Assembly (NCBI RefSeq): GCF_041381155.1
Contig: NC_091134.1
Location: 31,625,540 to 31,689,539 of the forward strand
From: Argopecten irradians
Taxonomy: Eukaryota > Mollusca > Bivalvia > Pectinida > Pectinidae
Length of the DNA stretch: 64,000 nucleotides
Direction of reading: 5' to 3'
Part shown: positions 5,001 to 42,500 of the stretch, in pieces
How the letters are laid out: each line of letters opens with the position of its first letter
How positions within the stretch are numbered: the first letter of the stretch is position 1
Position numbers and translations under genes: made by a program
Notes under the pieces: generated by a model
Told to the model about the DNA's origin: nothing
The model's database searches: none
Seen by the model: only the letters and a program-made list of their open reading frames with translations

Positions 5001-8000
5001 TATTACTTAAAGATGCTCCACCGCCGACAGAGCATAAATGATATTAATCATTTGAACAATAATTGGTGTTTAATCGTGTATATATGTGCATAATTAACAC
5101 AAAAAAATAATATAAGATAATTTGTTTCGCCTTTTGTGCATGCGCAATCAGTACATCATTCCATATAGGATATAGTGTCACGGAATTTTTTCGGTATGCA
5201 ATTAATTATTTTTCATATTTTTAACTTGAAATAAAATTAGAAGCTCAAACTTTTCAATGGTGGTAATGGTGTAAAGTAAGTAACTTTTATAACTGAAGAA
5301 AAATACTAAATCGTCTGCTCCTGTTTTTTATAGTGAAAAAAATACAATTTGTCAGCGGTGGAGCATCTTTAAATATTTCCATTAGTATCATTCGTCGGAA
5401 ACAGCAACTTTTACTAGATTGACCTTTGTTGAAACAGCAAATTGTCTTGATAAATTGTAACACATACATCCTGACTTGGTTTAACAGCGGTAGATGAATG
5501 GAATCCAAGACCAGGCTGCCGTCAAATCATCGTCGTCTGCTGAAAGGCAAACTTTGACGTGCCATCAAAGTTAAGACGATATTTGATTAGATTCAATATT
5601 GCCAAATATTTATTGAACCTGATATTGACATTATTTTGCCCTTAAAGGTAACTTAATAACCGATGGAATGGTGGACTACTTTGTCGGACGACAGACTGAC
5701 AACGTGTCATGGACTGAGACTTCAATAGCCATAACTAATTCAGGCGGAATTAGAGCACCCATCGAGCAAGGTAAGACGGATGCAAACACCATTACCAAGT
5801 CAGGTAAAATCATAGCACCCATTGAATAATGTAAGAAAGCATGTAAAATCAGAGCGCCCATCGAACAAGGTACAAAATCATCGTACTTGATAACAATACA
5901 CACATGAACATATTTCATTTTTAAGGTGTAAAAACCCTCCCAAACTGTTCTTAGAAGGTATTATAAGGTAGATTTATCTGATACAGAAAACAACAATGAT
6001 AATAGTATATGGATTACTTGAAAAGTAATGTTTTTGTTTTTTTTTTTTTTTAATATCGATTCCTGTGGGTTTGGTTCGAAAAGACCAATGTGTAATTTTG
6101 CTCAAATTCAACGGATGTAAGTTTACATAATATTCAGCACGTTAATTTTCTTTCCTATCAGATATCTGTGTATGGCAGAAATTTATAATTTCATACAAAT
6201 TCCTGTCCTAGAAAGACGATCTGTCGATAGTCATACAAGATTTATCTAATTTAAATATTTTCATTTTCCCTCACATCTTACTCTTTGTCACAGGTACTAT
6301 CACCCGTGGAGACCTGTTGACACTGATGCCGTTCGGAAATAGCGTCGACGTGATTGATATAAAGGGCAAATATCTGCGTCAAGCATTAGAGCACTCCGTG
6401 GAAAATTATGATCCTGTCAGCAAACCTGGCGCATTTCTTCAAATGTCAGGTAAACAAACAAACATTAGATATCAGGAACAACAAAAATTTCAGAACTAAA
6501 GATTATGACACGCTTCTTTGTCAACAATTGATTATATGAATTAAATGTAGGTTATTGATTGTTGAATGCACGGTCTATACGAGCATAGCACTTGTAAGAT
6601 CGGATTGCGGTATAGTTTTAGGAAAGGTGAAAATATAAGGAAACCCTAATAAAGAAATGTTAACTTTCGAAAACATCGGAGAGGAGATATTATGTTATGG
6701 TTGGAACACATGAGTATTAAGAAAAGGGGAAGAATGAAATTGTAGAATGCTATAGGAAAGAATTTTAGTTCCGGAAAGAAAGAAATAACCATCGGAAATA
6801 TAGAAAATTTGAAGAAAAAAAATATAGGAAAACATATGGCAAGCTATAAGGAAGTTTAAAGAAGGGAATTGGAAAGGGTGAATAATGCTTTATAACAAGT
6901 AAGTCTGACAGACATCATTCTAGAAAATTTTTAAATAACATGAGCTGTTGGAGAACAGCAAAGCTCGCCTATTCAGTTTAACATTTATGATGACTTAAGC
7001 TTAAACAATTGACGAAACAGAAACTTGCTCAAAAACTTTAACGTGAAATGGGATGCCAACGCTGACGCCGACGCCGGGGTGACAACATTAGCTCTCCCTA
7101 TTCTTCGAATAGGCGAGCTAAAAAGTCCTTATTTATCGACAGGTCTTTTGGTCAAGTATAATCTTGGCAAACCTAAAGGTCAAAGAGTTGTGTCAGTAGA
7201 AGCCAGGTGTAGGAAGTGCAGTATCCCTGATTATAGCCCTTTGGTTGACACTGATGTATACAGAGTGGCTGCACTAGCTTTCACAATCAAGGGAGGAGAT
7301 GGTTACTCTGTGTTCCAGCACCACGAGAACTGGTACCAATACAGTAAGTGTGTCGGTCACGATGTACTCAAATAGTAGCATTCGATAGGTGTTACTAATA
7401 CAGTAAGTGTGTCGGTCACGATGTACTCAAATAGTAGCATTAGATAGGTGTTACCAATACCGTAAGTGTGTCGGTCACGATGTACTCAAATAGTAGCATT
7501 AGATAGGTGTTACTAATACAGTAAGTGTGTCAGTCACGATTACTCAAATAGTAGCATTAGATAGGTGTTACCAATACCGTAAGTGTGTCGGTCACGATGT
7601 ACTCAAATAGTAGCATTAGATAGGTGTTACTAATACAGTAAGTGTGTCGGTCACGATGTACTCAAATAGTAGCATTAGATAGGTGTTCCTAATACATTAA
7701 GCGTGTCGGTCACGATGTGCTCAAATAGTAGCATTACATATGTGTTACCAATACAGTAAGTGTGTCGGTCACGATGTACTCAAATAGTAGCATTAGATAG
7801 GTGTTACTAATACCGTAAGTGTGTCGGTCACGATGTACTCAAATAGTAGCATTAGATAGGTGTTACTAATACCGTAAGTGTGTAGGTCACGATGTACTCA
7901 AATATAAGCATTAGATAGGTGTTACTAATACAGTAAGTGTGTCGGTCACGATGTACTCAAATAGTAGCATTAGATAGGTGTTCCTAATACATTAAGCGTG

Positions 8001-9545
8001 TCGGTCACGATGTGCTCAAATAGTAGCATTACATATGTGTTACCAATACAGTAAGTGTGTCGGTCACGATGTACTCAAATAGTAGCATTAGATAGGTGTT
8101 ACTAATACAGTAAGTGTGTCAGTCACGATGTACTCAAATAGTAGCATTAGATAGGTGTTACCAATACCGTAAGTGTGTCGGTCACGATGTACTCAAATAG
8201 TAGCATTAGATAGGTGTTACTAATACAGTAAGTGTGTCAGTCACGATGTACTCAAATATTAGCATTAGATAGGTGTTACTAATACAGTAAGTGTGTCGGT
8301 CACGATGTACTCAAATAGTAGCATTAGATAGGTGTTCCTAATACATTAAGCGTGTCGGTCACGATGTGCTCAAATAGTAGCATTACATATGTGTTACCAA
8401 TACAGTAAGTGTGTCGGTCACGATGTACTCAAATAGTAGCATTAGATAGGTGTTACTAATACCGTAAGTGTGTCGGTCACGATGTACTCAAATAGTAGCA
8501 TTAGATAGGTGTTACTAATACCGTAAGTGTGTAGGTCACGATGTACTCAAATATAAGCATTAGATAGGTGTTACTAATACAGTAAGTGTGTCGGTCACGA
8601 TGTACTCAAATAGTAGCATTAGATAGGTGTTCCTAATACATTAAGCGTGTCGGTCACGATGTGCTCAAATAGTAGCATTACATATGTGTTACCAATACAG
8701 TAAGTGTGTCGGTCACGATGTACTCAAATAGTAGCATTAGATAGGTGTTACTAATACAGTAAGTGTGTCAGTCACGATGTACTCAAATAGTAGCATTAGA
8801 TAGGTGTTACCAATACCGTAACCGTGTCGGTCACGATGTACTCAAATAGTAGCATTAGATAGGTGTTACTAATACAGTAAGTGTGTCAGTCACGATGTAC
8901 TCAAATAGTAGCATTAGATAGGTGTTACTAATACAGTAAGTGTGTCGGTCACGATGTACTCAAATAGTAGCATTAGATAGGTGTTACTAATACCGTAAGT
9001 GTGTCGGTCACGATGTACTCAAATAGTAGCATGAGATAGGTGTTACTAATACCGTAAGTGTGTAGGTCACGATGTACTCAAATAGTAGCATTAGATAGGT
9101 GTTACTAATACAGTAAGTGTGTCGGTCACGATGTACTCAAATATTAGCATTAGATAGTCGTTACCAATTAATTATTTTGTAATAGAGCAATATGTGCTGG
9201 GTATACATATATCCCATGCGTTGGCATGCTATTCATACTATCAATTTTTCCCCGTTATTTTTAGATTTATTAGATATTGAAGTGCTATCGAACTACCTAA
9301 AGAAATTCAACCCAGTAACGGCTGGCGTAGAAAGGCGAATACAGTTTGTAAATTCAACACATACAACCGATTCACCATCGACATCGACGATATCGACATC
9401 AACAGCAAAACGATCCACATCGAACTCGGTATCTTCGTCAAGATTGCCACACGAAACAGTTCCACCATGTCAAGTTGGAGGAGCTAGTCAGCTAGTCATC
9501 AACCCATTAGTACTGTGTATTCTCATAATACTTGTTGTGCTTTAG
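2069..9545 (+). CDS. NT5E: Ecto-5'-nucleotidase (CD73-like), 3' eight exons
   Basis: Hydrolyses extracellular AMP to adenosine at the cell surface. Exons: 2069-2288, 2698-2886, 3705-3902, 4407-4538, 5648-5770, 6294-6449, 7143-7343, 9265-9545; together 1500 nt (499 residues plus stop), phases continuous. The first exon begins inside the protein (AVGNHEFDNG), so the signal peptide and first metal-binding motifs lie off the left edge. Visible family residues: GNHEFDNG, GLGH and VVGGHTHTF metal ligands; CRLRECNMGNL; NSGGIRAPI; MPFGNSVD and GGDGY of the C-terminal substrate domain. The last exon encodes a Ser/Thr-rich stalk and ends in a hydrophobic tail (LVINPLVLCILIILVVL), as expected of a GPI-anchor signal. 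Two introns hold tandem copies of the preceding exon end. The last exon has two acceptors 9 bp apart (9264 and 9273), both in frame. Convergent with PDCL3. Confidence 0.93.
5007..5372. mobile_element. TTAA-flanked MITE, 23-bp TIRs
   Basis: Terminal inverted repeats of about 23 bp, beginning TTAAAGATGCTCCACCGC on the left and its reverse complement on the right, lie about 366 bp apart and are bounded by TTAA at both ends. No ORF. TTAA target preference is known for piggyBac and Kolobok/T2 transposases; which applies is not decidable here. It sits in an NT5E intron. Confidence 0.8.
5739..5873 (+). repeat. Degenerate tandem copies of NT5E exon 5 end and donor
   Basis: The exon end at 5739-5770, with its donor (AGAGCACCCATCGAGCAAG then GTAAG), is followed by two degraded copies, about 5803-5832 (ATAGCACCCATTGAATAATG then TAAG) and 5849-5873 (AGAGCGCCCATCGAACAAGG then TAC). 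The copies lie in the intron. They keep GTAAG-like or GTAC donor context but are not open in the gene's frame beyond a few codons. Confidence 0.7.
6941..7124. mobile_element. Small Helentron/HINE-like element ending just before NT5E exon 7
   Basis: Subterminal inverted repeats AGCTCGCCTATTC (6962-6974) and GAATAGGCGAGCT (7108-7120) bracket a short non-coding body. The right end is a small hairpin (CTATTCTTCGAATAG) followed by GGCGAGCTAAAA. This is the same layout as the larger elements at 9921 and 27600. The element ends 18 bp before the coding exon that starts at 7143, so its flank supplies the pyrimidine stretch of the acceptor. Confidence 0.55.
7334..9172 (+). repeat. 59-bp minisatellite, about 31 copies, built on the NT5E exon 7 donor
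   Basis: The unit begins in the last bases of coding exon 7 (TACCAATACA) and includes the splice donor GTAAGTGTG plus following intron, then repeats about every 59 bp for about 1.8 kb. Most copies keep CAGTAAGTG or CCGTAAGTG. A variant unit reading CATTAAGCG, which lacks the GT, recurs near 7692, 7987, 8340 and 8636, spaced about 5 and 6 units apart. This shows block duplication of roughly 11 units (about 649 bp). Read-through from the exon meets an in-frame stop at 7373-7375. Confidence 0.95.
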
Positions 9546-9920
9546 TGTGTTTTGGGGAGTAAATCACGTGGGGGAATGGGGGATGCATTGTATTTATTAA
9601 CATTCCTGGAAACTGACTGTTTTTCCACTATTACCTGTAGTTACATCATTTTAAGTTTAGATTTGGTTTCAATACAAAAATAGGGTTGTGTCTAGTCTTA
9701 AAACACTAGGTTTCTAATATTTCAGTTGGCAACTGGCGATTATTTTTTTATATTGACGTTTAGTGAAGCGTCTCGTTCTGTTCTGACCTATCCAACTTGA
9801 ATATGCAAACGAGAACATAAGACTTTCTCTAGTTCGTAAAGAATTATTAATATAGACGCCAACTTTTATGCAATTAGTTTATGATTTTTTTTTACATTTT
9901 TAAATCGACGTCGTTATACT
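9546..9920 (+). other. NT5E 3' flank / probable 3' UTR
   Basis: Non-coding sequence between the NT5E stop and the next repeat. No canonical AATAAA signal is evident here and no other feature is recognised. Confidence 0.4.
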
Positions 9921-14083: not shown

Positions 14084-17000
14084 CTACCAGTCGTTCTCAT
14101 CGTCACTGTCTATTGCACTCTCCCTTACGGCTCGACTCATCACATCATCCACTCCCTGTTTAGGGGGACCCTCAAGATCTGTTTTTAACACTCCGTTTTG
14201 TGATAGTAACCATTCCAATTCTGTTGAGAGAAAGAAAAAACTTTTTTGAGAAACGAGATGCCATCAATCTGCACAAAAAATTTGAAATGAAAAGATACAT
14301 AATACAACATCTCCCCTTCATACATAGAACATACATTCTTGAATTAGAAGACTTCAAATGTGTATTCGGGGGTGAATGTGAGTGAAGTAGCACCTCTTGT
14401 TATTCTGATGCAGTACATGGTGTACCTAATGCTACTGGCCACACAGTTTTTCAGTTGGGATTAAGCTACATCGATATGCACCTTTAGATCTATTGATGCA
14501 TTGAGTGAATAAGAAATACAGATATTTTACATGCTATGTTTCATTCTATGGTGCATCAATGAGTGTAATGGAATTTGTTACTTTTTCAAAGATGAAACAG
14601 TTTATTTAAGGCCACATTCCACTGAAAATCATTGGTCGTTATGTTTAAGATAAACAAATTTTATCATCAGATGACAGCCATTTTTTTTATTAATATAGCC
14701 ACATTAGTCATGGTCATTTAAATGCTTTAGTCAGGGTCATTTAAATGCTTAGAAGAGGCATCTGTTATAAATCCAGATAAATCATGATAACTACAATGTT
14801 GCTATGAAACTATCATCTTAAAGCAGTTTATTTCAACAACTGACATTTAAAGCCAGAATTTCACATTACATTTCAATGTTAATGTTTAATTTGTTACTAA
14901 ACATTGAAAAGGTCATTAATATAGTAACTTAAAAGAAATAATGATGTTAATGCCACAAACTATATCAACATTGATGAGATGGCAACCATTCAAGAAACAA
15001 AATATTCTGGAAATAAAGACTCTTGAGACATTTTTTAATTCAAGGAGAAGCCACAGATTTTAAACCATAAAAAACATTGTTGCTAAAAGAAAATATTGCA
15101 GCAAGAGCTGGAATTTTTTATGTCGTTAAATACAAAATCTATTGATCATACTACTCACCATCTCTTTTAAAATTCATTCCTCCAAAGTTATGTGGCCCCA
15201 CCCATTGTTTCTTCATTTCACCATCAGTGTACACAAAAATAGTTGGTAAGTTTTTGTCAGGATAATTAGGAATGCACACACTCGACACACTTTTCACAAA
15301 TTTCACATCTGGGAATTTTCTAGCTAATTCCATCATATGTTGATTTATTAACGTACATAAAGGAATTCTGAAAGAAAAAGAAACAGAAAATGAATGAAGG
15401 CGATACAAACAATTCAGAGATCACAAACAATGAATAAAAAAGAAGCATAAATAAACCATCAAACACCTTTTTTGTTTCACTTTTGGTAGATTGATTTGTA
15501 TGTACATTTGTACTTTACATGCCATAACTTTTCTGGAACTTATACATGTAGTTGACTTGTACATGTTGATATGATGATTTAAGAACATCTAATTCTACAA
15601 ATACTGAAAGGATATTTAAAATTACATTATCTGTGTATGAAAAGGTGACAGATTATTTGGATTGAATACATTATGGGAAAACTTGAATAGCAATGCAGGA
15701 CCCCAATAAAACACTCTGAGTTTCCAATAGAAACAGGGATGGTAACAAAATAAGTGATGCAGAAGTCTCAAGGAGGGGAGGTAACCTGTTTTAGTTTACA
15801 ACAATGAAGAGAGATGGAGACACTACTAGGCAGAAGGGTGATAAGAAACTAAAGATGTAGACTTCTGACTAAGGGGAGATAATCTTTTTAATTTACAACA
15901 ATGAGAAGACTGAACGGAAGGAGATTTCTAATGAAGTGGAGATAACCTACCCTGTTTTACACCAATGAAGATGGACAGAGACTCCAGTGGGAAGAAGAAT
16001 GGTAACAACCTTCTCTGGTTAGCGTAAAAATTGTACATGCATGATTTTGTACCTAACCAGAGGGGGGTGGGGGAGATACACATGTAACTTACCCTGGTTT
16101 ATAAACATGAAGGACGACCCAGACACCATCTCCTGCTTTGTTGATTTCTCGGACCCAGTCCTCCTTTGTTATTTCTAAAACACTTCCAAACTTGGACTTT
16201 GCTGCTGCTGCCTTCATTTCTGCCATTCTTTGTCTCCTATTAACACAATAATGTTAAATTCAGACATTTTCTTTCGTTATGGTTTCATTGGTTGATTTTA
16301 AAACTGATAAAATAGGAAATAGATTTGATGTGTAAGACAATTATAGAGTTATCTGCCCTTTGGGAACATGTTTATTACAACATCATGATAGCGAATTCAG
16401 AGAAAATTGCACAAGTTTCACTAACAATGTAATGACAACAGAATTTGTACCAACTAGTAAGGGCAAATAACTTGGTAATATGCAAGGACAAAATAACTTT
16501 GATGAGGAGATTCATGTTTGCTTATCTATATGCATGCTATATTTAGTATAACAGGCAACTTAGCACTTGAAAGCAGACTATACAATTAAAACCTAAAACT
16601 GTACCTGGTAGCTCTGGAAAATATTGTATTGATGGGTTATCTTTAGTCAGAATTTGTTCTTTTATAATTTCCACAACCAATTGTAGGGTTGTCATTTCAA
16701 AATTTTAATAATTTTCAAAGTCTAAGATCTTTTATACAACCAAAAGAAATATCAATACAAAGATATGAAAGATGATATTGTCTATAACCTGTTTGAAATT
16801 CACATCTCTTGATTTATTAATTACCTGTATGCTTCAAATATTCGTTCCTCTTCTTCATCAATATCATCTTCTTTATCTTCAAGTTCATCCAGTGACATGT
16901 CGCACAAATCTTTTCCTGTAAATGAAAAATTTAATATAACTTACCAGCTAGGTTTCAAGAAAGTTATAGAGCAGAAATTTAGTATGAAAATTAATAAACA

Positions 17001-18787: not shown

Positions 18788-19270
18788 CTTGCTGGATTAT
18801 TCGGTCTTCTGATACCGGTGTTACTTTGGTTCTGCAATAAATACCCTTTTTTGAATCTACCCTGTTCGATTCTGTCACTTCTCAAAATAACGTCTACTCG
18901 CGTTAGTCATTTAATCTGGGAATCGTGTGTAATGTGAACACTTCCTTATATGGGCTGGGCAACAAAGTCAGTGTCAAGCAAAAGCTTTCTCTACGAATAC
19001 TTTAAATCAAACTTTTCAATGAACAAGACTATATTATTTCCGGATGTGGTTCTTTTGTTATACAGACCAACGTGCTTCCGGCTGAAATTGTAAACAGTAG
19101 GACCTAAACAACGTGAACAAACACATTCCTGATTAAATAAACAGGTGATTTAGAGAGAAGATACATGAACTAAAGAGGCATACATTTACCACAGCTATGG
19201 CGCTTTCATAACGTTTTCATTACATCGATAATATTGTGTCCTTTCATTCTTACGGCATTACTTTTAGAAA
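18788..19270. promoter_or_regulatory. Bidirectional promoter region PDCL3 / PIH1D1
   Basis: 483 bp separate the two start codons on opposite strands. Two ETS/GABP-type motifs are visible (TTTCCGGAT about 19038, CTTCCGGC about 19075), a motif class often found in bidirectional housekeeping promoters. Both 5' UTRs must lie here. No TATA box at a convincing distance. Confidence 0.6.
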
Positions 19271-22200: not shown

Positions 22201-25105
22201 ACTTGTTTCTTGTTGATTTTAGCATGCATGGCCACCAGACCCTGATATTTTGATTAGAATTTTCATTGCTGAATGACTGGATTATCTCCCCTTGTTTGAA
22301 ATTATAGAACAGACATTTCAAGTTATCTCACATTATACAACCAGACTTTCTTAATAATTCTTATAATTATTTAGAAATTTGTGGCTAGTATTAACGGCTA
22401 ATTTGGATAAAAATATAATTACACAAGTGCGGATAATTAAAAAAAAATGGTTTATGTTTTAGCATTCTGTAAAACATCAAATAATTGTAGCTTTCACATT
22501 AAACTAGAAAATACAAAATGTTTCTATTTTCATGCTTTCAGTTCAGCACCAGCATTACCAAAAGCCCCAAAATTAGATGCAGCGGATCTCAAAGCCAGGT
22601 ATAGTATCATACAAACACATGCTCTTTGATTGCATTATCAACAGTTGACAGTCATTATAGTTTTTAAAAGATGATACCTTTACTTTTCAAAAATAGATTG
22701 TATAGTATGATTTTTGTGTTGCCTGCAACGCAAGGGCGACACTTATAGTGTAGGTATCACTATGTCGGTGTCGTCTGCGTCCAGGAAATGGTTTCCGTGC
22801 GATAACTTAAGTATTTATTGTCCGATTTCAACCAAATTTGGTATATAGCATTATATGAATGAGATCTCCGATGAGTTCGATAATAGTCAAAATCCGTCAA
22901 TATTTGCAAGGGTTACGGGACTTTGATATTGTCAAAACAGATAAATCCGTGGTTTCCGCTCGATAACTTAAATATTTATCGTTCAATTTCAATCAAACTT
23001 TATAAATTGTTTTATAGCAATGAGATCTGGGATGAGTTCAATAATGGTCAAAATATGTCAATATTAGCAAGAGTTACAGGACTTTAAAATCCTCAAAACA
23101 GAAAAATCCATGGTTTCCACTCGATAACTAAAATATTTATCGTCCAATTTCATTCAAATTTTATGAAATGTTTTATATCAATAAGATCTCGATGGGTTTG
23201 ACAATGGTCAAAATCCATCGATATTTGCAAGAGTTATGGGACTTTAAAATCGTCAAAGCTGATAAATCCATGGTTTCCGCTCGATAGCTTTAGTATTTAT
23301 TGTCTGATTTCGACCAAATTTGGTATGTTGCTTTATATCAATGAGATCTTAGATGGGTTCGATAGTTCTCAAAATCGGTCAATATTTGCAGGAGTTACGG
23401 GACTTTAAAATCGTTGAAACATGGTTCTCGCTTGACAACTTTAGTTTTTATTGTCCGATTTAAACAAAATTTGGTATGTTGCTTTATATCACTGAGATCT
23501 AAGATGGGTTCGATACTTCTCAAAATCCATCAATATTTGCAAGAGTTACGGGACTTGATAACTTCACCTAATTATGAACAATATTTACAATTGTAAATAA
23601 CTATTTTTTGTGATGCTGTGCAGGCGACACATCCACTTCCGTGGAATTCTTTTTAAAATAAACTATGTCACAAATATTACAATGAATTGTACAGTAAAAC
23701 ACAGATAAAATGAACCTCTGAGGACCAACAAATTCATTTTTTATAAGCATAATTAGTTATATGCATATTGCAGATACCTTACTTTTTTATAACCATGAAT
23801 CTGTTGTAAGCATGTTTTACTGTACATAACAAAATCAGAATTCACTTTTATTACCATAAATAATTGTCACATCAATTTTTTTTGTAGGGGTCAGACACCG
23901 GAGTACAGAATAGTTCAGGATCCTGCTGAGGGACATCCAGAATATCTGGTCGCAGAAATCGATCTACCTAAAGTCGTAAGTTTCACATTTTGTAAAGGTT
24001 ACATTTTTAATGCTAGATTGTCAACTGTACAGGATGATCTTTAGGTTGCATGATAATTATTTACTAATTGTACAAGTCATTTCTCTTTAAGCATGTAATC
24101 TGTCTTTTTTGCATGGTACAGTTGAGATAAAGGTATTGATTTTTGACTCATTAGTTAGTGTGAAAAAATTGTTTGGTTATCTCTGAAAAAATATAACATT
24201 GCCCTTACAAAACACATTCAAAATCTAAACTGCAAGAGCTAGCAGATAGTTAAGTTGTGATATGTAGGAAAACTGAACATAAGCGTAGTAGTAGCAGCGT
24301 AAGTGTGAACTAAATGATTTATCTACTTAAAATATGATGCTATAATTTGATGATTACATTGTAAATGCTATTTTGTGATTTCCACAGAAAACGGTGAACA
24401 GTGTGACACTAGACATAGGCGAAGACCGCATTCTTCTGGAGACAAGATCCAACGTGTACTACCTAGATATATATCTGCCATTCTATCTCCTACAGGACGA
24501 GTGTGGAGCTCAGTTCAACAGGAAAACAAGGGTAAGATAGACACAGAATCTGTTGTAGAATTGTGCAATAGATTCTACAGGACAAAAGTGGGGCTAACTT
24601 CAACTGGAAAACTAGGGCAAGATAGACGTAGAATCTTCTGTAGAGTATTGATTCAACAAGAAAACTAAGATAAGCTATACATATGGCTGGTTATTTTTCT
24701 TATGTCCTTTTATCAGCCAAGGTAATTTTAATAAGGATGTACCTAGTTTAATTAGGAGGTTGAGATAAGCTGACACACAGAAAAACCACCAACCTACCCT
24801 TGAGTACAAGAATTGTCACTACTGGGCAACTGGCCCACTTATGATTTAAACTCAAAACCCAGAGGTGGTGGGCTATAATGGTAATTTGTAACACTTTAAC
24901 TACTCGGTCACCGCAGCCCCTACTCTTTTAGAGTATATAATTATGTAAAACAGCATACATTATTAAATTCAATCATTTAGAAAGGTATAAAAAAAAACCA
25001 TGAAGTACATTGTTTCAATATGTACATGATTTATATATATATAGCTAAATATGATAATTTTTTTTCCAGATTCTTACAATTACAATGCCAGTTCAGCCAT
25101 CATGA
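19271..25105 (+). CDS. PIH1D1: PIH1 domain-containing protein 1
   Basis: Subunit of the R2TP complex (RUVBL1/2, RPAP3, PIH1D1), which works with HSP90 in assembling PIKKs, snoRNPs and RNA polymerase II. Exons: 19271-19360, 20040-20115, 20299-20366, 20771-20888, 21178-21321, 21456-21549, 22542-22598, 23888-23975, 24388-24531, 25070-25105; 915 nt, 304 residues (human protein 290). The PIH domain runs from about residue 55 to 185: GFCLKTKAADGKKAFINVCH (lysine-rich strand in the phosphopeptide-binding area), FGFRIPMSLGEPHAELDK, CTAYDVVVNPGFL, EGIEDKYNQTL, EWVILKNKRFIGTLPEQRIR. A linker and a C-terminal CS-like domain follow (EYLVAEIDLPKV, LDIGEDRILLETR, YLDIYLPF), ending TITMPVQPS. Exon 9's end is tandemly copied into the next intron. 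Poly(A) signal candidate AATAAA near 25916. Confidence 0.95.
19672..19784. mobile_element. Short hairpin MITE (copy A)
   Basis: Inverted ends TAGTCCGCTAAACCTGCC and GACAGGTTTAATGGACTG, with internal TATTATTAGGC/GCCTGATAATA pairing, are flanked by CAGTCTACC on both sides, a probable 8-9 bp target duplication of hAT type. A second member of the family is at about 48697-48812. In PIH1D1 intron 1. Confidence 0.65.
22716..23652. mobile_element. Non-autonomous element with internal ~135-bp tandem units
   Basis: Left end GTTGCCTGCAACGCAAGGGCGACAC, right end TGCAGGCGACACATCCACTTCCGTGG, including a CCACTTCCGTGG hairpin. The interior has about five units of roughly 135 bp, each containing a 'GGTTTCCGCTCGATAACT' block, a 'TTCAACCAAATTTGGTAT' block, 'ATGAGATCT', and 'ATATTTGCAAGAGTTACGGG'. 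No ORF. It looks like the same structural class as the elements at 9921 and 27600. In PIH1D1 intron 7. Confidence 0.6.
24490..24680 (+). repeat. Tandem copies of PIH1D1 exon 9 end plus donor
   Basis: The exon end CTACAGGACGAGTGTGGAGC...AACAAGG with donor GTAAGATAGA recurs 85 bp later as CTACAGGACAAAAGTGGGGC...AACTAGG followed by GCAAGATAGA. A third partial copy (TTCAACAAGAAAACTAAGAT) follows about 53 bp further on. The second copy has a GC in place of the donor GT. Confidence 0.8.
24706..24920 (-). mobile_element. tRNA-headed SINE, degraded copy
   Basis: Minus-strand copy of the same SINE as at 63244-63450. It has a degraded tRNA-like head (reverse complement of ACTACTCGGTCACCGCAGCC), the conserved central domain (reverse complement of cacagaaaaaccaccaacct) and a tail ending near ATCAGCCAAGGTAATTTTAA. 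Older than the 63-kb copy. In PIH1D1 intron 9. Confidence 0.7.
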
Positions 25106-27355
25106 CAGCGGACATTATGAAAAGATTTACTGTGATAATTTGTTTCTCAAAACCACTTACTTATCACATCAACAAAACTTATTGGAGATTCAATGTGTTG
25201 TGAATTATTAGGATCTACATTATTGAACAGCGTCACCAAAACAACAGGATATTTCTCATGGCATATGGACGTTTTGCCTATGTCACCATCACTAAAACTA
25301 ATCAACATTTCATGTCATGTGGATTATGGGTTTGTCAGTATCATTGACTGATAGTATCGAGAAAACTGATTCAGATTGAATTCAATATGTTTTGTTAACA
25401 TACATGTCTGTCTTCATTATAAACTATCAACTTAAAGTGAAAATCTGACAATGATGTAAAGTATAACAACCATTTTATTTATTTTTCAACAATTACTAAT
25501 TTAAACAAGTTGTGTTATACATTTGTATGTCTAATTGGTGACTCAAACCCCTGTGGCCAATACATGGACACTTGTACAATATCACTGAGTCCATGTGTTT
25601 TGAAGCCATTAAGAGAATCAGTGTCATATATATATGGAGTCAGCAAAAAGAATGCAACTTAAAGTGTGTACATGTGACAGGTATATATACCAAGTAAATA
25701 ATTAAATTTTCTCTTTTGATAGCATAATTAGCAGATTCTGTATCTACATGTTTCATTTTAATGATCAAAAGTTTACATTTGTAAATATATATAATGCCAT
25801 TATAGGAATATTATCTGATATTCTTAAAATGGAAAGTAAGCTTAACTACATGTACATGTTTACCAAGATAGTCTTGTTAAAAAATTTCCACAAACATTTG
25901 AAGTTTATTTTTCTAAATAAAACAATAAGGAAGCTTTCTGAATGTCTTCAGACTTTTTTTTCTTCTGGCACAAAAAAGAAAATGCTACTGGTGATTACAA
26001 TTGATCAAAATGACCTGCAGCATACATTCAAATAATAAATATACTAGCTGCAATATTGTAGCTCAAAAGACTTTTAGACAGATAATGATGTCGTCTTTAG
26101 AGCTACAATTGGTGCCCATTACTGCTAATGGAGCAAAGTAATGATTATGCAAACCAATATTAAATCGTTTGCATGCATTTTATCTTACTTGTTTTATATC
26201 GCTTACCTACTAGGCATTAAAACTGAACCGTATAAAAAATCAAATTCTCAGCAAACATTATTTTTTTTACATATACATATGAAGGCTGTTTTGAAGAAAA
26301 TTTATACGGCAAGTCTACAAATTATGAATTTGACATCTTGTGGGCGGTACGGTAGATTTTAAGAATGGTAGTTATGTTTGTTTTGGACAAAAATATTAAT
26401 TAAATGCTTGTATACGCATAAAACAATTGGAAACCTACAAAAGAGAAAGGTATAGTAGGCCGGGTACGTATATTCGTTCTATAAATATACTAGTAATTGC
26501 TCCTTTTTAAAAAACGAATTAAGAAAACAACAGATGTATGTACTAGGATTGGAGCAAGTTATGTTGATGTAAATATATTTACATCTTTATATGAAAAGAC
26601 ATTGTGTACATCATATATTATTCAATGCAGACTAGTGATGATACATAGCAAAATCAGTTAATTTTCTACACGTAAAAATATAGTCTATTTTAAAACTGAG
26701 TACTCAAATGAATTTTCTGATGAAAAATAATTCAACATATTACTATCTTTAAATGTTGTAGAATGAATAGATAGGATATTAATCTGCAGACTAGGAGTGA
26801 CCTCGTTAACAAACGGATACCTCATGTTATAAACAAACTTTCTTCAGCAGCCATTTTGAAATTACATCAAGTCCATAGAAGTTAAGTTTCGTGGAACTCA
26901 AAACGTCTAAAAAATTTACCTTTCAATGTAAAATAAGAAATTATCTATTTGTGCGGATAAACTTTTGTAAAATCACCTTGATAGTAAAATTCTAGAATAA
27001 ATTGCACTTGAAAGAAAGTTGGTTTAATGTACATGCATGTCTCCTCATTAAAATCTGACTGATGAATGATATGATGGGTTTACATTTTATATGTAAATAC
27101 TCCTAAGTAGATGTACTTTTTATCTTCACTTTTGTCATAAGACTCTTTACATGTCAATAGTAACAATATAACTTGCATTGTCATTGCATGATGCATCTTA
27201 GAGGATGTTTCAATATGCAATCTTTTACGATTCCATTTCATGTCCCTTAATTACTTCAATGCTTTGTCATAAAAAGCCAATCCTACAGGAATATTTAGAC
27301 AAAAGGCCCCTTCACTCCAGATCTGAGGATCTGGTATTCTTGATGATCTGCTCTG
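25106..27355. other. PIH1D1 3' flank to CMSS1 stop, mostly unassigned
   Basis: Convergent intergenic DNA. It holds the probable PIH1D1 3' UTR with AATAAA near 25916, an interspersed element at about 26047-26485, and a duplicate of the CMSS1 terminal-exon end at 27266-27306. Several short open frames in AT-rich sequence have no recognisable similarity and are not called. Confidence 0.45.
26047..26485. mobile_element. Interspersed element, copy 1, with flanking direct repeat
   Basis: Starts CTAGCTGCAATATTGTAGCT and ends GTACGTATATTCGTTCTA. The sequence ATAAATATACTAG occurs at both edges (about 26036-26048 and 26482-26496), suggesting a target duplication of 9-13 bp. A shorter relative in opposite orientation is at about 59918-60125, sharing both ends and the GCTCAAAAGACTTTTAGAC block. 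No ORF of interest. Confidence 0.55.
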
Positions 27356-27392
27356 TCATAACATGCCAATCTTACATGAATGTTTCGATATA
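27266..27392 (-). repeat. Tandem copy of the CMSS1 stop-codon region
   Basis: The final coding stretch of CMSS1 on the minus strand (TGTAAGATTGGCATGTTATGA at 27356-27376) is repeated about 84 bp downstream in the 3' UTR as TGTAGGATTGGCTTTTTATG. Homology extends over about 40 bp either side. Confidence 0.65.
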
Positions 27393-30300
27393 TGTGGTAT
27401 CATATAGTCCTTCATAAATTCCATAAGATGTCCACGGATCTCCGGGATATCCACCATCCGCTTGGATTTTACGTCACGCCAGTTCCAGTCTAACACAACA
27501 GCGACAACATTATCCAGGTGTAAGGCACCTATAAGGAAAACCAAGAGGAAATAAGACTGGTACTGATCTTGATTGGATTGTTTAATAATATCATTTTTAA
27601 CAAGAGACCCAGAGGGCCTGTATCGCTCACCTGGTTTGTAATGCCAAGTAATGTTCTAAATACAGGTTCATTGTTTCTTTTCTGAAGGAATTCGAAATAT
27701 TTACTTCTAAAGGGGGGGGAGGGGTCAGAGCCAAAATTTATACAAGTTCTGTTCCCCTTCCCCCATGTTTGTGGCCAAATTTGGTTACAATCCATGCAGA
27801 ACTCTAGGATAAGTAGCGGTTTATAGGATTTACCTCTATTTCCCCTATTTGGCCCCACCCCTCCTGCCCCCGGGGGTCAGAGCCAAACTTTATACAAGTT
27901 CTGTTTACCTTCCCCAATGGATGTTTGTGGCCAAATTTGGGTCAGAGCCAAAATTGTTACAAGTTCTGTTCCCCTTCCCCCAAGGATGTTTGTGGCTAAA
28001 TTTGGTTACAATCCATGCAGAACTCTAGGACAAGTACCAATTTATAGGATTTACCTTTATTTCCCCTATTTGGCCCCACCCCTCTTGCCCCCGGGGGTCA
28101 GAGCCAAACTTTATAAATGTTCTGTTCCCCTTCCCCCAAGGATGTTTGTTGGCCACAATCCATGCAGAACTCTAGGACAAGTAGCGATTTGTAGGATTTT
28201 CCTCTATTTCCCCTATTGGGCCCCGCCCATCCTGCCCCCTGGGGGTCAGAGCCAAACTTTATACAAGTTCTGTTCCCCTTCCCACAAGGATGTTTGTGGC
28301 TAAATTTGGTTACAATCCATGCAGAACTCATGGACAAGTAGCGATTTATAGGATTTACCTTTATTTCCCCTATAGGGCCCCGCCCCTTCTGCCCCCGGAG
28401 GGTCAGAGCCAAACTTTATACATGTTCTGTTCCCCTTCCCCCGAGGATGTTTGTGGCCAAATTCGGTTACAATCCATACAGAACTCTAGGACAAGTAGCG
28501 ATTTATAGGATTTACCTCTATTTCCCCTATTGGGCCCCGCTCTCCTGCGCCCCGGGGGGTCAGAATCAAACTTTATACAAGTTCTGTTCCCATTCCCCCA
28601 AGGATGTTTGTGGCCAAATTTGGTTACAATCAATGCAGAACTCTAGGACAAGTAGCGATTTATAGGATTTACCTCTATTTCCTCTATTGGGCCCCGCCCC
28701 TCCTGCCCCCGGGGTGTCAGGCCAAGTTCTATTCCCCTTCCCCCATGGATGTTTTTGGCCAAATTTGGTTACAATCCATGCAGAACTCTATGACTAGTAG
28801 CGATTTAAAGGAAATGTTGACGGACGGACGACGGACGCTGCGCCATGACATAAGCTCACCGGCCTTCAGGCCAGGTGAGCTAAAAATGTTATAGAGAATG
28901 GCTCAATCCAAACAGATTCACTTTACATTATGTCTCCTTGTAGAGTTATCTACCTTTATGTCAGAAACTATTAAAGTTGATAATAATAAAAAAATGTTTT
29001 CCATCAAGACATTGTATGTTAATATCGGTATGTACTCTCAGTTTTGCCAGAAATCCACATACACTGATAGCATTTACCCAAACAGATTTTGACCTTATTT
29101 AACCTATTTAACCAGAGTTATTTACCTGATTTAACAAGAGTATGTAGTCTATTTGGTGTCCCCAGGCCAATGTGACACACCTTTTTTGCCAGAAATTTCT
29201 GCTGCTCCTCGAGCTGTAATGAAAAGATTCATCATTTTCCATTAAGATCACTTTGGCCATAAGCTCCAAACATCTAACCTTATGGACTTGTACTGTAAGT
29301 ACCAGACTTTCTATCATATTAAAGTTCAGTTTAAAATCGGTTAATACAATATGTGAAAATTGAGTTTAAAATGTGTTTCAATATCACTTTTTCTAGAAAA
29401 ACTTCATTAAAATATAGCTGAACACATGATTGTGCATACGCTGAACACGTGATTTATTAAGTGATGACTTAATATTAGCAGAAAGCAACATTTTTTTTGT
29501 TTGTTACCTTAAAGTGCTTCGCAAACAATTTAGCAATCTTGCAATCACTGCTTTTGAAATCCAATATTTCCCTGAAAAATAAAGAAGATAAAAAACATAT
29601 TGGTACAGCTATACTGAGGCATTCCTTTTTTTTTCTGAGAACAAGCTAATAAGCTATGCATGAAAGTCACACATTTCAAATAATTACAACTTTAATACAA
29701 GGCATTAAAGAATTAGAAAAAAAATCCATTACAAGTTTTGAGTTTAGTATTCTTCTTTAAAATTGCATTCACACCAAAGGATCAAGGGTTTATATTTCAT
29801 TAAAGTAAACTAATTGTAAAATTTTAGGTGCACATTATCAATACAGATCCAGATTACCTGTTGAGCTGCACACTGCGGATAGCAGAGGCCGATATCAGTA
29901 ATACTAGTGGAGATCCTGGCTTCAACTCTGTCTTCAACATCTTCTTCCACTTCGGAAGGATGGTACGTAAATATGACACATAGGTATGATCTTTGTCTGA
30001 ACTCACAAAAAAGTTCCTGTCTAATAAAACATAATAATGTCCAATGATATATATTCAGTTCATTAATTTTTCATTTATAATCAAATACATTTGAAAAATA
30101 TATTCTTTTATGGCCTTCTTGTATTTCAATTGGACCAACATCTGACATTGATCAGTAAGCACCACGCTAAGTTCCAGCTTTTTGATACAAATCTTACAAT
30201 AATTTCCCTATTCTGACAAGACTATTCTCATAGTTAACTTTTAATATCATTTTTGACTTCAGATTGAACAAAAAAAACTAAAGATGATAATGGTGGTAAT

Positions 30301-33140: not shown

Positions 33141-33530
33141 GAGGACAAAAAAATAAGTTAAACTAACGTAGACTGTAGTGGTGCGCACATGGCAGAAATA
33201 AACATCATCAATGTGAATATGATGCTAAGGTGCCTCGTCTTCGTTTATATGAAATATAACGTTGAAATGACCCAGATTCGTTATTTAGTATATTAGTTTC
33301 GCATTCAATGTGTATTGTCATGTAACTAACATTGTTTTAATTAATTTCATAATATTTAATACAAAATAGAAATATGTACAGATTTATATCATTATCATGG
33401 CGATATGTGGTTAATCCAGAAATAATACGAAAACGTGGCTAAAAATGACCCGCTGTTAAAGCAGACGAAAAAATGGAGGAGGGGAACCTGTAATTTTTTT
33501 GGAAGAAATAACTGGGCATCCCGTTCCATC
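33141..33530. promoter_or_regulatory. Bidirectional promoter region CMSS1 / TRAPPC10
   Basis: 390 bp separate the start codons of two divergent genes, so both 5' UTRs and the core promoters must lie here. An ATGGCGATATG near 33398 resembles a YY1-type element. Nothing else is certain. Confidence 0.55.
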
Positions 33531-36500
33531 ATGGAGACGAAACCCATCGTAACAAGTACTTATTTTACACAACACATCATATTTGTCACAAAACACAAGA
33601 AAACTTCTGTGTATGCAGTGTGAGGTGCACGGTTATCAATGCTCAACATAATTTGTAAAACAACAACACTGCATGGGCAACGAAAAATGACCCATGATCA
33701 AACATTTATAAATGCTGTATGCCCATGTCTGCACACAGCCATTGCATACGAGCCCCACAGCTGGCCGTATATTTAGATAAAATGTACACTAAAAATTCAA
33801 TAGTAAGCTTAATCGGGAAATGCAGATCTATATACTGTACATACACCATATGTTTGTGGGAAATATAAAAATATATATATATATATATATACATGTATAT
33901 GCATACTACAGAACAGTGGGAAAATTAATGAAAAGGCACAGCATTTGTTCATAATTAAAGTTATTTGTATAATGTTTCTAAGGTTTGAAAATATATAGGT
34001 CCATTATTTTACAATTAACTCCTAACTGTATTCAAATGCAAAAGATTTATTTCATGTGTAACAGGAGAGGAGAAAATGTAGCGGCCAGACCGGGATTCGA
34101 ACCTGGGACCCTCAGAATACTAGCCGAGTGCTCTACCGACTGAGCTACCTGGTCACTGATGATTGACCCAGTCCAATCCCGCTACACTCCTCCCTCCTTT
34201 CTCGAAGTCTTTGCCCTCGAAGACATACGAGACCCTTCCAAACACCACCACCATGGGTTATTTAGTTGGACGCCAATTCTGTAACAGGAGAGGAGAAAAT
34301 GTAGCGGCCAGACCGGGATTCGAACCCGGGACCCTCAGAATACTAGCCGAGTGCTCTACCGACTGAGCTACCTGGTCACTGATGATTGACCCAGTCCAAT
34401 CCCGCTACACATGTAAGTTGTAGAATATTAGCTACTGTTGTAGCAGAAAAGATATCACCTTCTGACTGACAGTCAGAAGGTGATATCTTTTCCGCTACAA
34501 CAGTGGCTAGTAGAATATATGCAAGTGTACTATGTAGCGGGATTGGACTGGGTTGATCATTGGTGACAAGGTAGCTCAGCAGTAGACCATGCAGCTAGTG
34601 TTTGGATCGAGGTCTGGGGTTTGAATCCCGGTCTGGCCGCTACATTTTCTTCTCTCCTGTTACAAAATTGGTGCCCAACAAATGTATATTGTAAATGTTA
34701 GAAAAAAATAAAAGTGAGTGGCAAAACTATAATAATATACATGCATGTATAATGTATATATATGTATATATGACATATTATATTTTCATTTTATCCATTT
34801 AAAAATACAAAGTGATAAAACTTATATATTTAACATTTGATCTCTTTACAGGTCATGGGAATCAGGTTCTCTTTTCATCATTGCATTCTGCCCTCCTGCA
34901 AGGGTTACCCAGGGACTCTACAGAATGGAGAAGGTAGACCTCATTTGTACTTCCATCTTTTGTATTTCATGTAGGATTCAACTGATATGTCACTCTACTT
35001 TTAAAGTTTAGTAAAAACCACATTCACTTACATGTACAATATTGTAAATAAAAAATTCACAATGCATACTTTCAAATGCTTTCAAAAAAAATTTATCAAG
35101 ATAACAAATAAATTTAAACTACATGTACAATTATGAATGATGATGGTTTGATATTGATGCAATATGCATGCCTTTTAAATTTTTTACCGACATTCATGTA
35201 TATAATTGCATATATCTTTTCCATTAGTATATAAAGGGGTATTGACTTTTATATTGTCAAGTTCTACTGTTTACAGATCATATGGTAGGCCTCCCAAGAC
35301 CCTACAACTTGAAGCCAGCTTTGTGCCTTTTGATGAAGATATCCTCCCTCAAGATAAGGACAAGACACTCGTTAGTCGACCCTACTTTCACATATTTTGG
35401 ACAGATTGTGTAAGTGGTGGAAAATATATTGCTATGTAGTAAAGTTTTAGACTTTTTGTCCAAACTGTAATTTGAACACAACATCTTTTAATGAAAGAGC
35501 ATTTTGAATGATTCAACAATACATGCATTCTCTATGTTCATGGCACTTTGCTTACTGTTTTAATTCCTGCCAAAATTGGTTTAATGCTACAAAAAAAACC
35601 AACAGTAAGGTTTTACATAAATGACAATTTTCAACCCTTCAGGAGTCAACTTTTCACAAATCTAGCTTTCATATCTTAACAATGTATACGTAGCCTGATT
35701 GTTATGGTTTATAAAGGGAAACAACTCTTGGCTTATTATAAACTAATTATTCTTCAATGTAATTTTGCACATACAAATGTATTCATTTGCTATCACATTG
35801 GGTATGGTAATAAAACCAATAGTGGCTAAACTATTAAAACCAAAATTTCATTTTGTGTTTGTTATAAACACATTTGACTGTATAGACAGTGACTGTCAAC
35901 ATTGTTATCCACTGCTATACGTATACCCTTGCTAATGTTGAATTAATGCAATGCAATAAGTAATACTGTTTTGAATTAATCTTAAAACTTCATATTTATT
36001 TGTTTTTGACCCTCTCACTAGGATCTGGACACCTATAAGCAGTCTGTGAAGGAAGAGTTGATGGAATGGCACACAGCACTGAAAAACAAGAGTAACCCGG
36101 ACTGGCTGATCGTGGTTGTCGTCAATGATGAAAGTAAAATTAAGTCCAAACTGTTACCAAGGTCATCTGTTATAGACAAAGTTAAAAATGACTTCTGTAG
36201 CAAACATCCTGACAGGTATGGAAATAGCGACATATGTTGGCAAAGCGTAACAAAATGTAGTTTAAATTTTACAAAATCTGAATGGATATAGATTTCTATT
36301 AGTTTCTGTATGTTATCATTATTTCTACAAATAGTAAATTTGATATGGTATTTCCTTCTGTGATCATTCTGTGCTGGGAGAGTAATTTTTATACCATTTT
36401 GAAATAAATATGACATTTTAGAAATAGTAGTCAGAAGGTAGATATATTCAGTATGTGGTCAAAGTATCTTGACAAAAACCACTGATCTTCAGTCATGACC

Positions 36501-39500: not shown

Positions 39501-42500
39501 GTCATACATTAATAAATAATATTGATAAATCATGAGATCTCTTCTTTTTCAACAACTATGTTTTGAGTACATATAGTTTGTATAAGCTTGATTATAAGAA
39601 AATGTGTTGATAAAATTGAATTGCATTTTGTTTACAATAAGTCTTATGCATAAGATATTTTTTAAAGAGGAGAATTATTCCGGACAAGATGGATCCCAGA
39701 GTCCCCGTCCCAGGGACAAACTGAGAGAAGCATTATCGTCCAATGACACATTCCAAAAAATATTCCTGGTATGATATCTTATATGTTACAAAAAGTCATT
39801 TGTATATATATGTAAGTAATTTTTTTTGATTGGATTAGGAAATATTTAAGTCTAAGATTGTCTCAAGTTCCTGGAACTTGGTTGTTTATGAATGACCACA
39901 TCAAAGTATGCAGTTTATTTGTGATCTGTCACTTCACAGGCAATCAATCAAAATTGTGATATCACACCAATTTTAGCAGTTTTACAGAGAAAAATAAATA
40001 TCTACACCTGTTAATTGTGATGTTTTAATAGATTCCATTTAAATTCTATCTGTATGTAAAATTTATGTGATAATCATGAAAAAAAGTTTTTTTTGGATTC
40101 TAGGAACTGTCTGAATTGACGATGGGGACCTTTAAACATATAGGAAGGTTTAGATCAGCACGGCATATCGGCAAGGACTTAGCTGATTTCTATCTGTAAG
40201 TTGGATTTAAAGTAATTTTAAAGAAATGATATAATTCATATAACAAAATTATTAGTATTGTGTACTGCACTATAAAGCCTGTATAGCTTTTAGAAAATTA
40301 AATGACAAATCCTTTACATGTACTGCGTGTGCCTTTAAAACTAATTTACCTATCAGACGCCTCGGAGAAGCCCAGAAAGCAGGTAAATCCTTTACATGTA
40401 CTGCGTGTGCCTTTTATAAAACTATTTACCTATCAGGCGCCTCGGAGAAGCCCAGAAAGCAGGTAAATCCTTTACATGTACTGCGTGTGCCTTTTATAAA
40501 ACTGATTTACCTATCAGGCGCCTCGGAGAAGCCCAGAAAGCAGGTAAATCCTTTACATGTACTGCGTGTGCCTTTTATAAAACTGATTTACCTATCAGGC
40601 GCCTCGGAGAAGCCCAGAAAGCAGGTAAATCCTTTACATGTACTGCGTGTGCCTTTTATAAAACTAATTTACCTATCAGGCGCCTCGGAGAAGCCCAGAA
40701 AGCAGAGAACTTTTTGGTGGATGCTATGAAGAGTTACCAGCGTGAGGGATGGCATGCTCTAGCTGATGGTGCTATGTTAGATCTGGCAAGGTGTCAGAAA
40801 CTACAGGGCATTGATGTCAAGTATTCTTTGATAAATTAATACAAAGTATTATATATATTGATGATTTTATTTTATTTTTTCCAAATGTCAGCATTCTCGT
40901 ATTACTATAGCTAGTAAATAATTTGTTTAACATCCAATTCAATATTCATATTTGAATTGGATGTAAAATAATTTATTATACAGTTATTGAATAAACAAAA
41001 TCTTGATTTGAAAAAAAAGTACCAAAATAAGCCATACTTCACTGCTTAATTAATCTACCACATATCTCTTTCAGTTTTCATTTGAAAACATTACAGTTAT
41101 TATCATTTTACCAATAAAAAGATACTTTTATACTGGACATTTGATATATATGAACTACACCTCACAACTGTAGTCTGCTCCCCAGTTGACATTGGATTGT
41201 GTTTTACTCTGATGTTTGCTAACCTTGACAATAACACCAGATATATTAAAACTTGCTGTAACATAGCCAGCAGTACTCACCTGTCTGAGGATGTCCGACA
41301 GATACACCTACAAGAAGTTGTAGATACAGCAAAGGAAAGTCCAGGTAGATAGTTACTGTCTGTATGGTTATTGAAGTTATATCAATTTGTCAAAGCATTT
41401 GATACCTGATTCAAAGGAGTAAAGATATCATAAATTATATATTACTGCATCTAGATATATTATAGGATCTGGAGAAGAAAAAAAATAGCACTTTTGATAT
41501 AATTATTATTATATTTCTTTTGAATATACAAATAAACTGTTACAACTGTATATAATCGTAATTTGGATGGTTAATCAGAAATTGTATTTTCAGTTTGTAA
41601 AAGCAGAAGGATTTCCTATAAAACCATTGAAATACTGATAAATCTTATTTTCATCCTTGCTATCGCATACTATATACCAGTATATAGGTTTTTTGAGAGC
41701 ACATGAATGTGTTTGGTTGAGTGTGTGGTTGTAGTGAGATCAAAATTTATCTTGAAAAGTTTTAGGTTTATTAATTTTAAACCTGTTTATGTATAATGGT
41801 TGTGAGTATGGTTTCAAATTACAGACACAGCCTTCACCCTGAAGTTATCCTCACTGTTCCACATAGCTGAAGTAACGGTGCTAACCCCAGAAATCATCGT
41901 GGACCAAACTTTAGAGGTTGAGGTGATGCTAGTTAACAACACTCCTAGTGACATTCACTGTGACAGTTTGAAAATTTCACTGAAAAAGACAAATAAATTA
42001 CCAAAACTTCTGTCTCAGAAGACCGCAGTGTTCCGACAGGCCAGTAATAGTAGTGCTAAAGAGGCTGTGCCCAACTTTAACCCTGTCGCTCAACAGATTA
42101 CTAGTATACTGAACGTCCAGGCTCACTACGAGGGAGCTCCTCAGCGACCCAATACTGCTGGTATAGTGTGTATTAATACCCACGAGGTGCTACGTCGAGC
42201 TGACAGCTCAGGGCGAGCAGGGAAAATGGCTGATGCTCTTAAGGATTATGACGATTTCACAAATTATGCAAGTTGTGAAGATCTTGTCATCAAGCCTGGA
42301 GAAAACAAATTTATATTTGTACAAAAAGTGAGTATTCTTTGTCAGATTTCTGTATTTTAAATTATATGGTAAGTTACCTTTCATACATCAGAAGAATTTC
42401 GGAACGAGAATCAGCTGAAGGGGAAGTTCTGATTACTGAATTTAGGCCTGGTTCAAAACCGCTCAATGATGGAAAATAATATAGAATAATGTGATATAAA

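What the first reader, a model, noticed from the sequence alone, without database searches (positions are those of the whole stretch)
5739..40820. Recurrent tandem duplication of exon edges, with their splice sites, in five neighbouring genes
Six separate tandem repeats are each built from the edge of the adjacent coding exon: NT5E exon 5 donor (3 copies), NT5E exon 7 donor (~31), PDCL3 exon 4 donor (4), PIH1D1 exon 9 donor (~3), CMSS1 stop region (2), TRAPPC10 exon 12 acceptor (5). Ages range from near identical to heavily diverged, so the process seems ongoing rather than one event. Five include a splice site. This is reminiscent of the tandem-duplication model of intron gain (duplicated AGGT-containing exon segments), or of a local repair bias at exon borders. 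I have not seen this clustering described.
Basis: partly seen in the sequence, partly recalled or inferred. Interest (0 to 1): 0.82.

Follow-up and report, generated by a model that had tools for sequence, protein, structure and literature searches.

The report
Splice-site minisatellites, genome-wide, not local
Short pieces spanning the edge of an exon have been copied head-to-tail into the neighbouring intron, not only in these genes but elsewhere in this genome too, apparently most often at the splice site where an intron begins; lancelets are the known precedent, and it gives a way to study how splice sites get multiplied.

Summary
All six repeats are real (each beats 300 of 300 shuffles; PDCL3 narrowly). 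They are not a local cluster: duplication loci run at 21.9 per 100 kb here, 20.0 and 18.0 in the flanks. The same structure recurs at donors of DDX23, HDAC8, a DTW-domain gene and probably a BIR gene. Placement tests on 354 kb give a modest donor excess (8 seen, 2.5 expected, P 0.003-0.009; without the window 5 against 2.1, P 0.05) and no clear acceptor excess. Whole-genome word counts agree: arrays carrying CAGGTAAGT number 4 in 6.5 Mb, arrays carrying its mirror at least 15 in the whole genome; triples per single word are 9-fold up. It works like, and largely fits, the 'mirages' of lancelets. Best reading: local tandem duplication across an exon edge, the outermost copy kept as working splice site, commonest at 5' splice sites. 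TRAPPC10 adds ready-made 26-nt microexons and 54-55-nt mini-introns, but no gained intron is shown. Gaps: RNA, a sister species, whether remote arrays abut exons, and the cause of the donor excess.

The parts
5748..5872 (+). NT5E exon 5648-5770: 3' edge and donor, about 3 copies; third copy at 5847-5872
   Evidence: SW 37 vs shuffle max 25; self-BLAST locus
7331..9174 (+). NT5E exon 7143-7343: last 13 nt plus donor plus about 46 nt of intron, 59-bp unit, 31 copies
   Evidence: TRF, self-BLAST, 31 donor copies; unit found at this locus only, in a search that skips very common words
15737..16128 (-). PDCL3 exon 16093-16236: donor region, about 4 diverged copies in the intron on the left; edge copy 16085-16128 aligns to 15943-15986
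   Evidence: SW 28 vs shuffle max 26; intronic copies 76% identical, period 99
24490..24681 (+). PIH1D1 exon 24388-24531: last 40 nt or so plus donor, 2 copies and a partial third, 85-bp period; GT lost in copies 2 (GC) and 3 (AT)
   Evidence: SW 71 vs shuffle max 26, third copy 30 vs 26; donor scores 7.9, 2.3, 3.5
27260..27388 (-). CMSS1 stop-codon region, 2 copies of 40 bp, period 89; not a splice site
   Evidence: SW 45 vs 26; self-BLAST 82.5%
40307..40705 (+). TRAPPC10 acceptor: intron end plus first 26 nt of exon 40680-40820, 5 copies; each of the four copy junctions makes a CAG|GTAAAT donor
   Evidence: TRF; acceptors ending at 40356, 40436, 40517, 40598, 40679, junction donors score 10.6, microexons 26 nt, mini-introns 54-55 nt; found at this locus only
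40437..40679 (+). Potential in-frame extension of the TRAPPC10 exon by one to three 27-residue units if copies 4, 3 or 2 serve as acceptor; copy 1 would frameshift

Best explanation
These are mirage-type minisatellites. A short stretch crossing an exon edge (about 10-40 nt of exon plus some intron) was duplicated head-to-tail in place by slippage or unequal repair; the outermost copy stays joined to the intact exon and remains the working splice site, and the inner copies become intron. Selection removes duplications deep in exons, so edge cases survive. Young arrays grow and exchange blocks, old ones diverge. It happens across the genome and seems commonest at 5' splice sites, where extra downstream donors should be tolerated better than extra upstream acceptors. 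Shown: copies next to their source, units found at one locus each (three tested), recurrence at other genes, donor excess in word counts. Inferred: the repair mechanism, use of the outermost site, and the reason for the donor excess.
For: Units of NT5E exon 7, TRAPPC10 and one remote array are each found at one locus only. Same structure at a DDX23 donor (flanking exons align to human DDX23 without a gap), an HDAC8 donor, a DTW-domain gene and probably a BIR gene. Aligned exonic overlap is 12-15 nt in NT5E exon 7, DDX23, DTW, HDAC8 and one unverified exon. Donor edges 7/135 vs intronic pseudo-edges 24/1844, p=0.004; placement 8 vs 2.5. CAGGTAAGT triples 3383 vs mirror 101; singles 19404 vs 5409; array rates 0.62 vs 0.018 per Mb. 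AAGGTAAGT triples 1507 vs mirror 189. In four of five arrays the intron part of the first copy matches later copies better than the exon part (NT5E 0.97 vs 0.83, DDX23 0.96 vs 0.78, DTW 0.90 vs 0.69, BIR 0.81 vs 0.65; copies chosen by intron match). A dead-donor variant recurs at NT5E copies 7, 12, 18, 23, as block exchange would give.
Against: Outside the window the donor excess is small (4/88 vs 18/1339, p=0.04; all edges 5/176, p=0.18). With arrays of 2.6 copies or more, acceptors also reach P 0.036 (4 vs 1.34; three of the four rest on unverified exons), so the donor preference is not clean; no donor-against-acceptor test is below 0.029. A rotation test in the window shows fewer crossed edges than expected (3 vs 12.9). 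Exons outside the window are predictions from a model trained on this window; the HDAC8 exon enters only at the laxer threshold. The donor array rate rests on 4 arrays, one shared with the rotated control word; that control is only 10-fold lower and its p for AAGGTAAGT is 0.055. In HDAC8 the exon part matches as well as the intron part (0.92 vs 0.89). In DDX23 and DTW the BLAST locus reaches 49 and 56 nt into the exon, not 12-15. Exon sequence decays more slowly, so old duplications stay visible longer at edges.
Confidence: 0.75

Rival explanations
1. Plain background: tandem duplication is so common in this genome that edges are hit by chance, and no site preference exists.
For: 72 duplication loci in 354 kb; rotation test shows no excess in the window; outside-window all-edge test p=0.18; slower exon decay could give up to about twofold apparent excess (inference).
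Against: Donor-specific tests p 0.002-0.07 over 30 settings and P 0.0025-0.067 over the placement settings; CAGGTAAGT arrays 10 to 34 times commoner than arrays of three control words, AAGGTAAGT 6 to 20 times; excess also for hits of 88% identity or more (5/135 vs 13/1844).
Confidence: 0.25
2. An intron-gain engine: duplicated boundaries become new introns, as in the tandem-duplication model.
For: TRAPPC10 copies carry acceptor, 26-nt exon piece and a junction-made strong donor (10.6) with 54-55 nt between them; a gained potato intron has a similar build (PMC4974935, passages read).
Against: No new intron position is shown; one 26-nt microexon shifts the frame; the last acceptor alone gives a protein colinear with the human one as recalled; most verified cases sit at donors and make no complete intron.
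Confidence: 0.1
3. Arrays of 5' splice sites are selected for a function, such as holding U1 snRNP at the intron start.
For: 26 of 31 NT5E exon-7 copies keep a donor score of 5.3 or more; the PDCL3 copy keeps a good donor though old (9.2 against 9.6); donor bias.
Against: PIH1D1 copies 2 and 3 lost GT and NT5E exon-5 copy 3 weakened from 9.8 to 4.3; young arrays are near-identical anyway; no expression data.
Confidence: 0.08
4. Assembly artefact: collapsed or invented tandem copies.
For: Long near-identical arrays are hard to assemble; no reads available.
Against: Copies differ by many variants (93% in NT5E, 76-88% in older ones); the contig is 75.5 Mb.
Confidence: 0.04
5. Insertions of a dispersed mobile repeat that carries donor-like motifs.
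For: Three arrays in the sample share a GAGGTAAAT-bearing repeat and look dispersed by eye.
Against: Units of the three arrays searched are found at one locus each, though the search skips very common words; units match the local exon end.
Confidence: 0.03

Closest known systems
[quoted passage not shown] similar repeats in PGBD5)
   Same: Tandem units spanning an exon/intron boundary, at donors or acceptors, minisatellite unit size; regular splicing reported to continue there (PMC3087553, PMC3902484, passages read)
[quoted passage not shown]
   Same: Intron end plus exon start duplicated and a 5' splice signal activated, like the TRAPPC10 array (PMC4974935, passages read)
   Different: Potato has a new intron supported by phylogeny; TRAPPC10 has five copies and no shown new intron
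Rogers AGGT tandem-duplication model (as cited in PMC4974935 and PMC3087553)
   Same: Tandem duplication supplies splice signals
   Different: Model needs an exonic AGGT segment; these arrays start from existing boundaries
Internal tandem repeats altering human paralogues (PMC2812944, outline only)
   Same: Minisatellite expansion changing gene structure, by its section headings
   Different: Segmental-duplication paralogues; detail not read

Membership tests
Mirage (lancelet exon/intron-boundary minisatellite) | Tandem units contain both exon and intron sequence of the adjacent boundary | tested here: met
   Five of the six window repeats (PDCL3 narrowly); CMSS1 is a stop region, not a boundary
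Mirage (lancelet exon/intron-boundary minisatellite) | Present at several genes of one genome | tested here: met
   Window genes plus DDX23, HDAC8, DTW-domain and probably a BIR gene
Mirage (lancelet exon/intron-boundary minisatellite) | Units homogenised by concerted evolution, cluster boundary excluded | tested here: inconclusive
   Pattern fits in four of five arrays, not in HDAC8; block recurrence in NT5E; one haplotype only
Mirage (lancelet exon/intron-boundary minisatellite) | Normal splicing persists despite duplicate sites | not testable with these tools
   No RNA data
Mirage (lancelet exon/intron-boundary minisatellite) | Copy number varies between haplotypes | not testable with these tools
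   One assembly only
Intron gain by tandem duplication | A new spliced intron absent from outgroups | not testable with these tools
   No RNA, no related species held
Intron gain by tandem duplication | Duplicated unit supplies both a donor and an acceptor | tested here: met
   TRAPPC10 only, by sequence scores: donors 10.6, acceptors 7.4-8.9; usage unknown
Rogers AGGT model | Source is an exonic segment containing AGGT | tested here: not met
   The five splice-site repeats of the window and the verified outside cases include existing intron sequence

The most novel reading that the evidence does not exclude
5' splice sites are themselves birth places of minisatellites: something tied to transcription or splicing makes tandem duplications start there roughly ten times more often than at other sites, so hundreds of introns of this animal begin with an array of ready-made donors.
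Probability: 0.35. Interest if true: 0.8.

Novelty: new member of a known kind. Interest (0 to 1): 0.58.

Why it matters
In the papers seen here, mirages are a curiosity of a few lancelet genes. Finding them at several unrelated genes of what is probably another kind of animal, with a measurable preference for the intron start, turns them into a countable class. That makes two open questions testable: whether splice sites are mutational hot spots for tandem duplication, and how often duplicated boundaries feed new introns or alternative splicing.

Tried and rejected
A rotation test in the window gave no excess; it stays in the report but is a poor null, because a few long arrays away from exons dominate it. 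DNA folding of the two units gave nothing unusual (z -0.16 and -0.03), so a hairpin cause was dropped. Dispersed-element origin was set aside for three tested units. An acceptor word gave few arrays (67 matches, 6 arrays by my count, mirror 10); its single-word abundance was not measured, so no acceptor-donor ratio is claimed from it; the same holds for AAGGTAAGT and the rotated words. The in-frame 81-nt TRAPPC10 unit is suggestive but could well be chance (my estimate). An early remark that NT5E exon-5 copy 3 had lost its donor came from a misplaced position; one search shows it keeps GT. Papers: searches (listings); no paper on such arrays in molluscs was seen in these listings. The earthworm metallothionein paper (PMC12783039, passages) has intronic minisatellites but no splice-site ones in the passages seen.
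Full report
What is in the window. All six repeats exist. Local alignment of each exon edge (or stop region) to the neighbouring DNA beat every one of 300 dinucleotide shuffles, PDCL3 only by 28 to 26. Of the six, TRF sees only the NT5E exon-7 array (59 bp, 31 copies) and the TRAPPC10 array (81 bp, 5 copies). I placed 52 exons (104 edges) of the five genes by reading frames and splice sites. Four proteins pass Pfam cut-offs for the expected families; the TRAPPC10 fragment passes narrowly for Foie-gras_1 only, so its name rests on the human protein as recalled. The host species was not tested.

Is it a cluster? No. Self-BLAST (score 34 or more; in a similar scan two shuffled windows gave one and no hits of that score) finds 14 duplication loci in the 64-kb window, 20 and 18 in the left and right 100 kb, and 20 in nine further 10-kb stretches, 72 in 354 kb in all. 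Four of the nine stretches were arbitrary places; five were chosen around DEAD-box exons without knowledge of repeats.

Does it recur at exon edges elsewhere? Yes. In one of the five DEAD-box stretches (L028) an array with an 80-bp BLAST period starts at the end of a DDX23 exon: 15 nt of exon by alignment, 49 by the BLAST locus; the two exons flanking that intron align without a gap to human DDX23. In the right flank an array starts 14 nt inside the end of an exon matching HDAC8. On C4 (L026) one starts at the end of an exon with a DTW match (12 nt by alignment, 56 by locus; E 7e-7, below the Pfam cut-off). In the left flank one starts at a predicted exon about 1 kb downstream of a BIR exon, probably the same gene. 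A fifth case (right flank, 52689) rests on a weak predicted exon. The three acceptor cases outside the window, seen at the lax threshold, rest on unverified predicted exons. Nothing of the kind was flagged in the other stretches (L024, L025, L027, L029, L032).

Is there an excess? Counting duplication loci that end 3-60 nt inside an exon and cross its edge, all edges gave 10 of 280 against 25 of 1918 pseudo-edges inside introns (p 0.009); without the window 5 of 176 against 18 of 1339 (p 0.18). That count includes the CMSS1 stop. Dropping the window's start and stop edges, donors gave 7 of 135 and acceptors 2 of 137 against 24 of 1844 controls (donor p 0.004; without the window 4 of 88 against 18 of 1339, p 0.04). 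I ran 30 settings there; donor p ranged 0.002-0.07, and donor against acceptor 0.029-1. Before these counts, predicted exons lying wholly inside duplication loci were dropped (five at threshold 22, listed). Random placement of the same loci, avoiding exon interiors, expected 2.5 donor cases against 8 seen (P 0.003 and 0.009 in two runs), or 2.1 against 5 without the window (P 0.05); acceptors 2.6 against 4 (P 0.26). For loci of 2.6 copies or more donors gave 5 against 1.3 (P 0.0095) but acceptors also 4 against 1.3 (P 0.036). Against an excess, a simple rotation test in the window found fewer crossed edges than expected, 3 against 12.9.

A whole-genome check without annotation. The word CAGGTAAGT, a strong donor, occurs 19404 times against 5409 for the same word read backwards. 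Three copies at 29-59 bp spacing occur 3383 times against 101, 9-fold more per single word. Of the first 100 single hits, 40 lie in four arrays (my count). Because long arrays inflate such counts, I counted arrays in the listings: 4 in the first 6.47 Mb for CAGGTAAGT, 2 in 5.52 Mb for AAGGTAAGT (1507 matches against 189 for its mirror), but 15 in the whole genome for the mirror word (100 of 101 matches listed), 3 in 69.8 Mb for GACTGAATG (960 matches) and 11 in 182 Mb for the rotated GTAAGTCAG (1909 matches), which itself contains the donor core and shares one array with CAGGTAAGT. Rate ratios for CAGGTAAGT are 34, 14 and 10 (p 1e-5 to 0.0015); for AAGGTAAGT 20, 8 and 6 (p 0.0055 to 0.055). 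Only the CAGGTAAGT/mirror pair was corrected for single-word abundance. The one remote array whose unit I searched is found at its locus only.

Anatomy and likely history. In NT5E exon 7, DDX23, DTW and BIR the intron part of the first copy matches later copies better than its exon part, in every matched copy, as expected if copies are homogenised but the exon is held by selection; in HDAC8 the exon part matches at least as well in 40 of 44 copies. Copies were chosen by intron match, which favours the first pattern. A variant with a dead donor recurs at NT5E copies 7, 12, 18 and 23, pointing to exchange of multi-copy blocks. Old extra donors decay unevenly: PIH1D1 copies 2 and 3 lost GT, NT5E exon-5 copy 3 keeps GT but weakens (9.8 to 4.3), the PDCL3 copy keeps a good site (9.2). 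So the simplest mechanism is in-place tandem duplication, expansion and divergence, with the outermost site kept. Its use in RNA is inferred.

TRAPPC10 is the most provocative. Each of the four upstream units carries an acceptor (scores 7.4-8.9), 26 nt of exon and a junction-made donor (10.6), with 54-55 nt to the next acceptor: four potential microexons and mini-introns. Acceptors 4, 3 and 2 would add 81, 162 or 243 nt in frame without a stop; acceptor 1 would frameshift. The build resembles the potato RdRp gained intron (PMC4974935, passages).

Known kind. Lancelet genes carry minisatellite-like duplications of exon/intron boundaries named mirages (PMC3087553, passages; PMC3902484, passages). 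Structure and unit size match; homogenisation is only partly shown; splicing and length variation are untested. The original Adh paper was not held. What appears to be new, as far as the listed searches show, is the scale in one genome and the preference for donors. Its cause is open: mutation, tolerance of extra donors, slower decay of the exon copy, or function. I rate a true birth bias at donors at about one in three.

Noticed in passing
window 3705-4538: The frames of NT5E exons 3705-3902 and 4346-4538 do not join by the obvious splice sites; a weak alternative donor or an assembly indel may explain it.
   Followed up: no
window 27721-28812; left flank 44471-45271; L030 8994-9784: Arrays of 156-172-bp period sharing a GAGGTAAAT motif, apparently one dispersed repeat type (likeness judged by eye).
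   Followed up: partly
window 34057-34410: Two 131-bp copies 99% identical containing a tRNA-like box sequence, probably a SINE-type pair.
   Followed up: no
L029 4217-4377 and 5705-5865: Two predicted exons coding the same peptide 1.5 kb apart in a DEAD-box helicase gene: duplicated exon or assembly duplicate.
   Followed up: no
G000 C1:487315-493480: A roughly 6-kb array, spacing mostly 48 bp, with the AAGGTAAGT donor word.
   Followed up: no
right flank 91080-91306; L030 337-569: Tandem repeats lying inside open frames (a DTSLETEINNVDT-type repeat and an RS-rich stretch).
   Followed up: no
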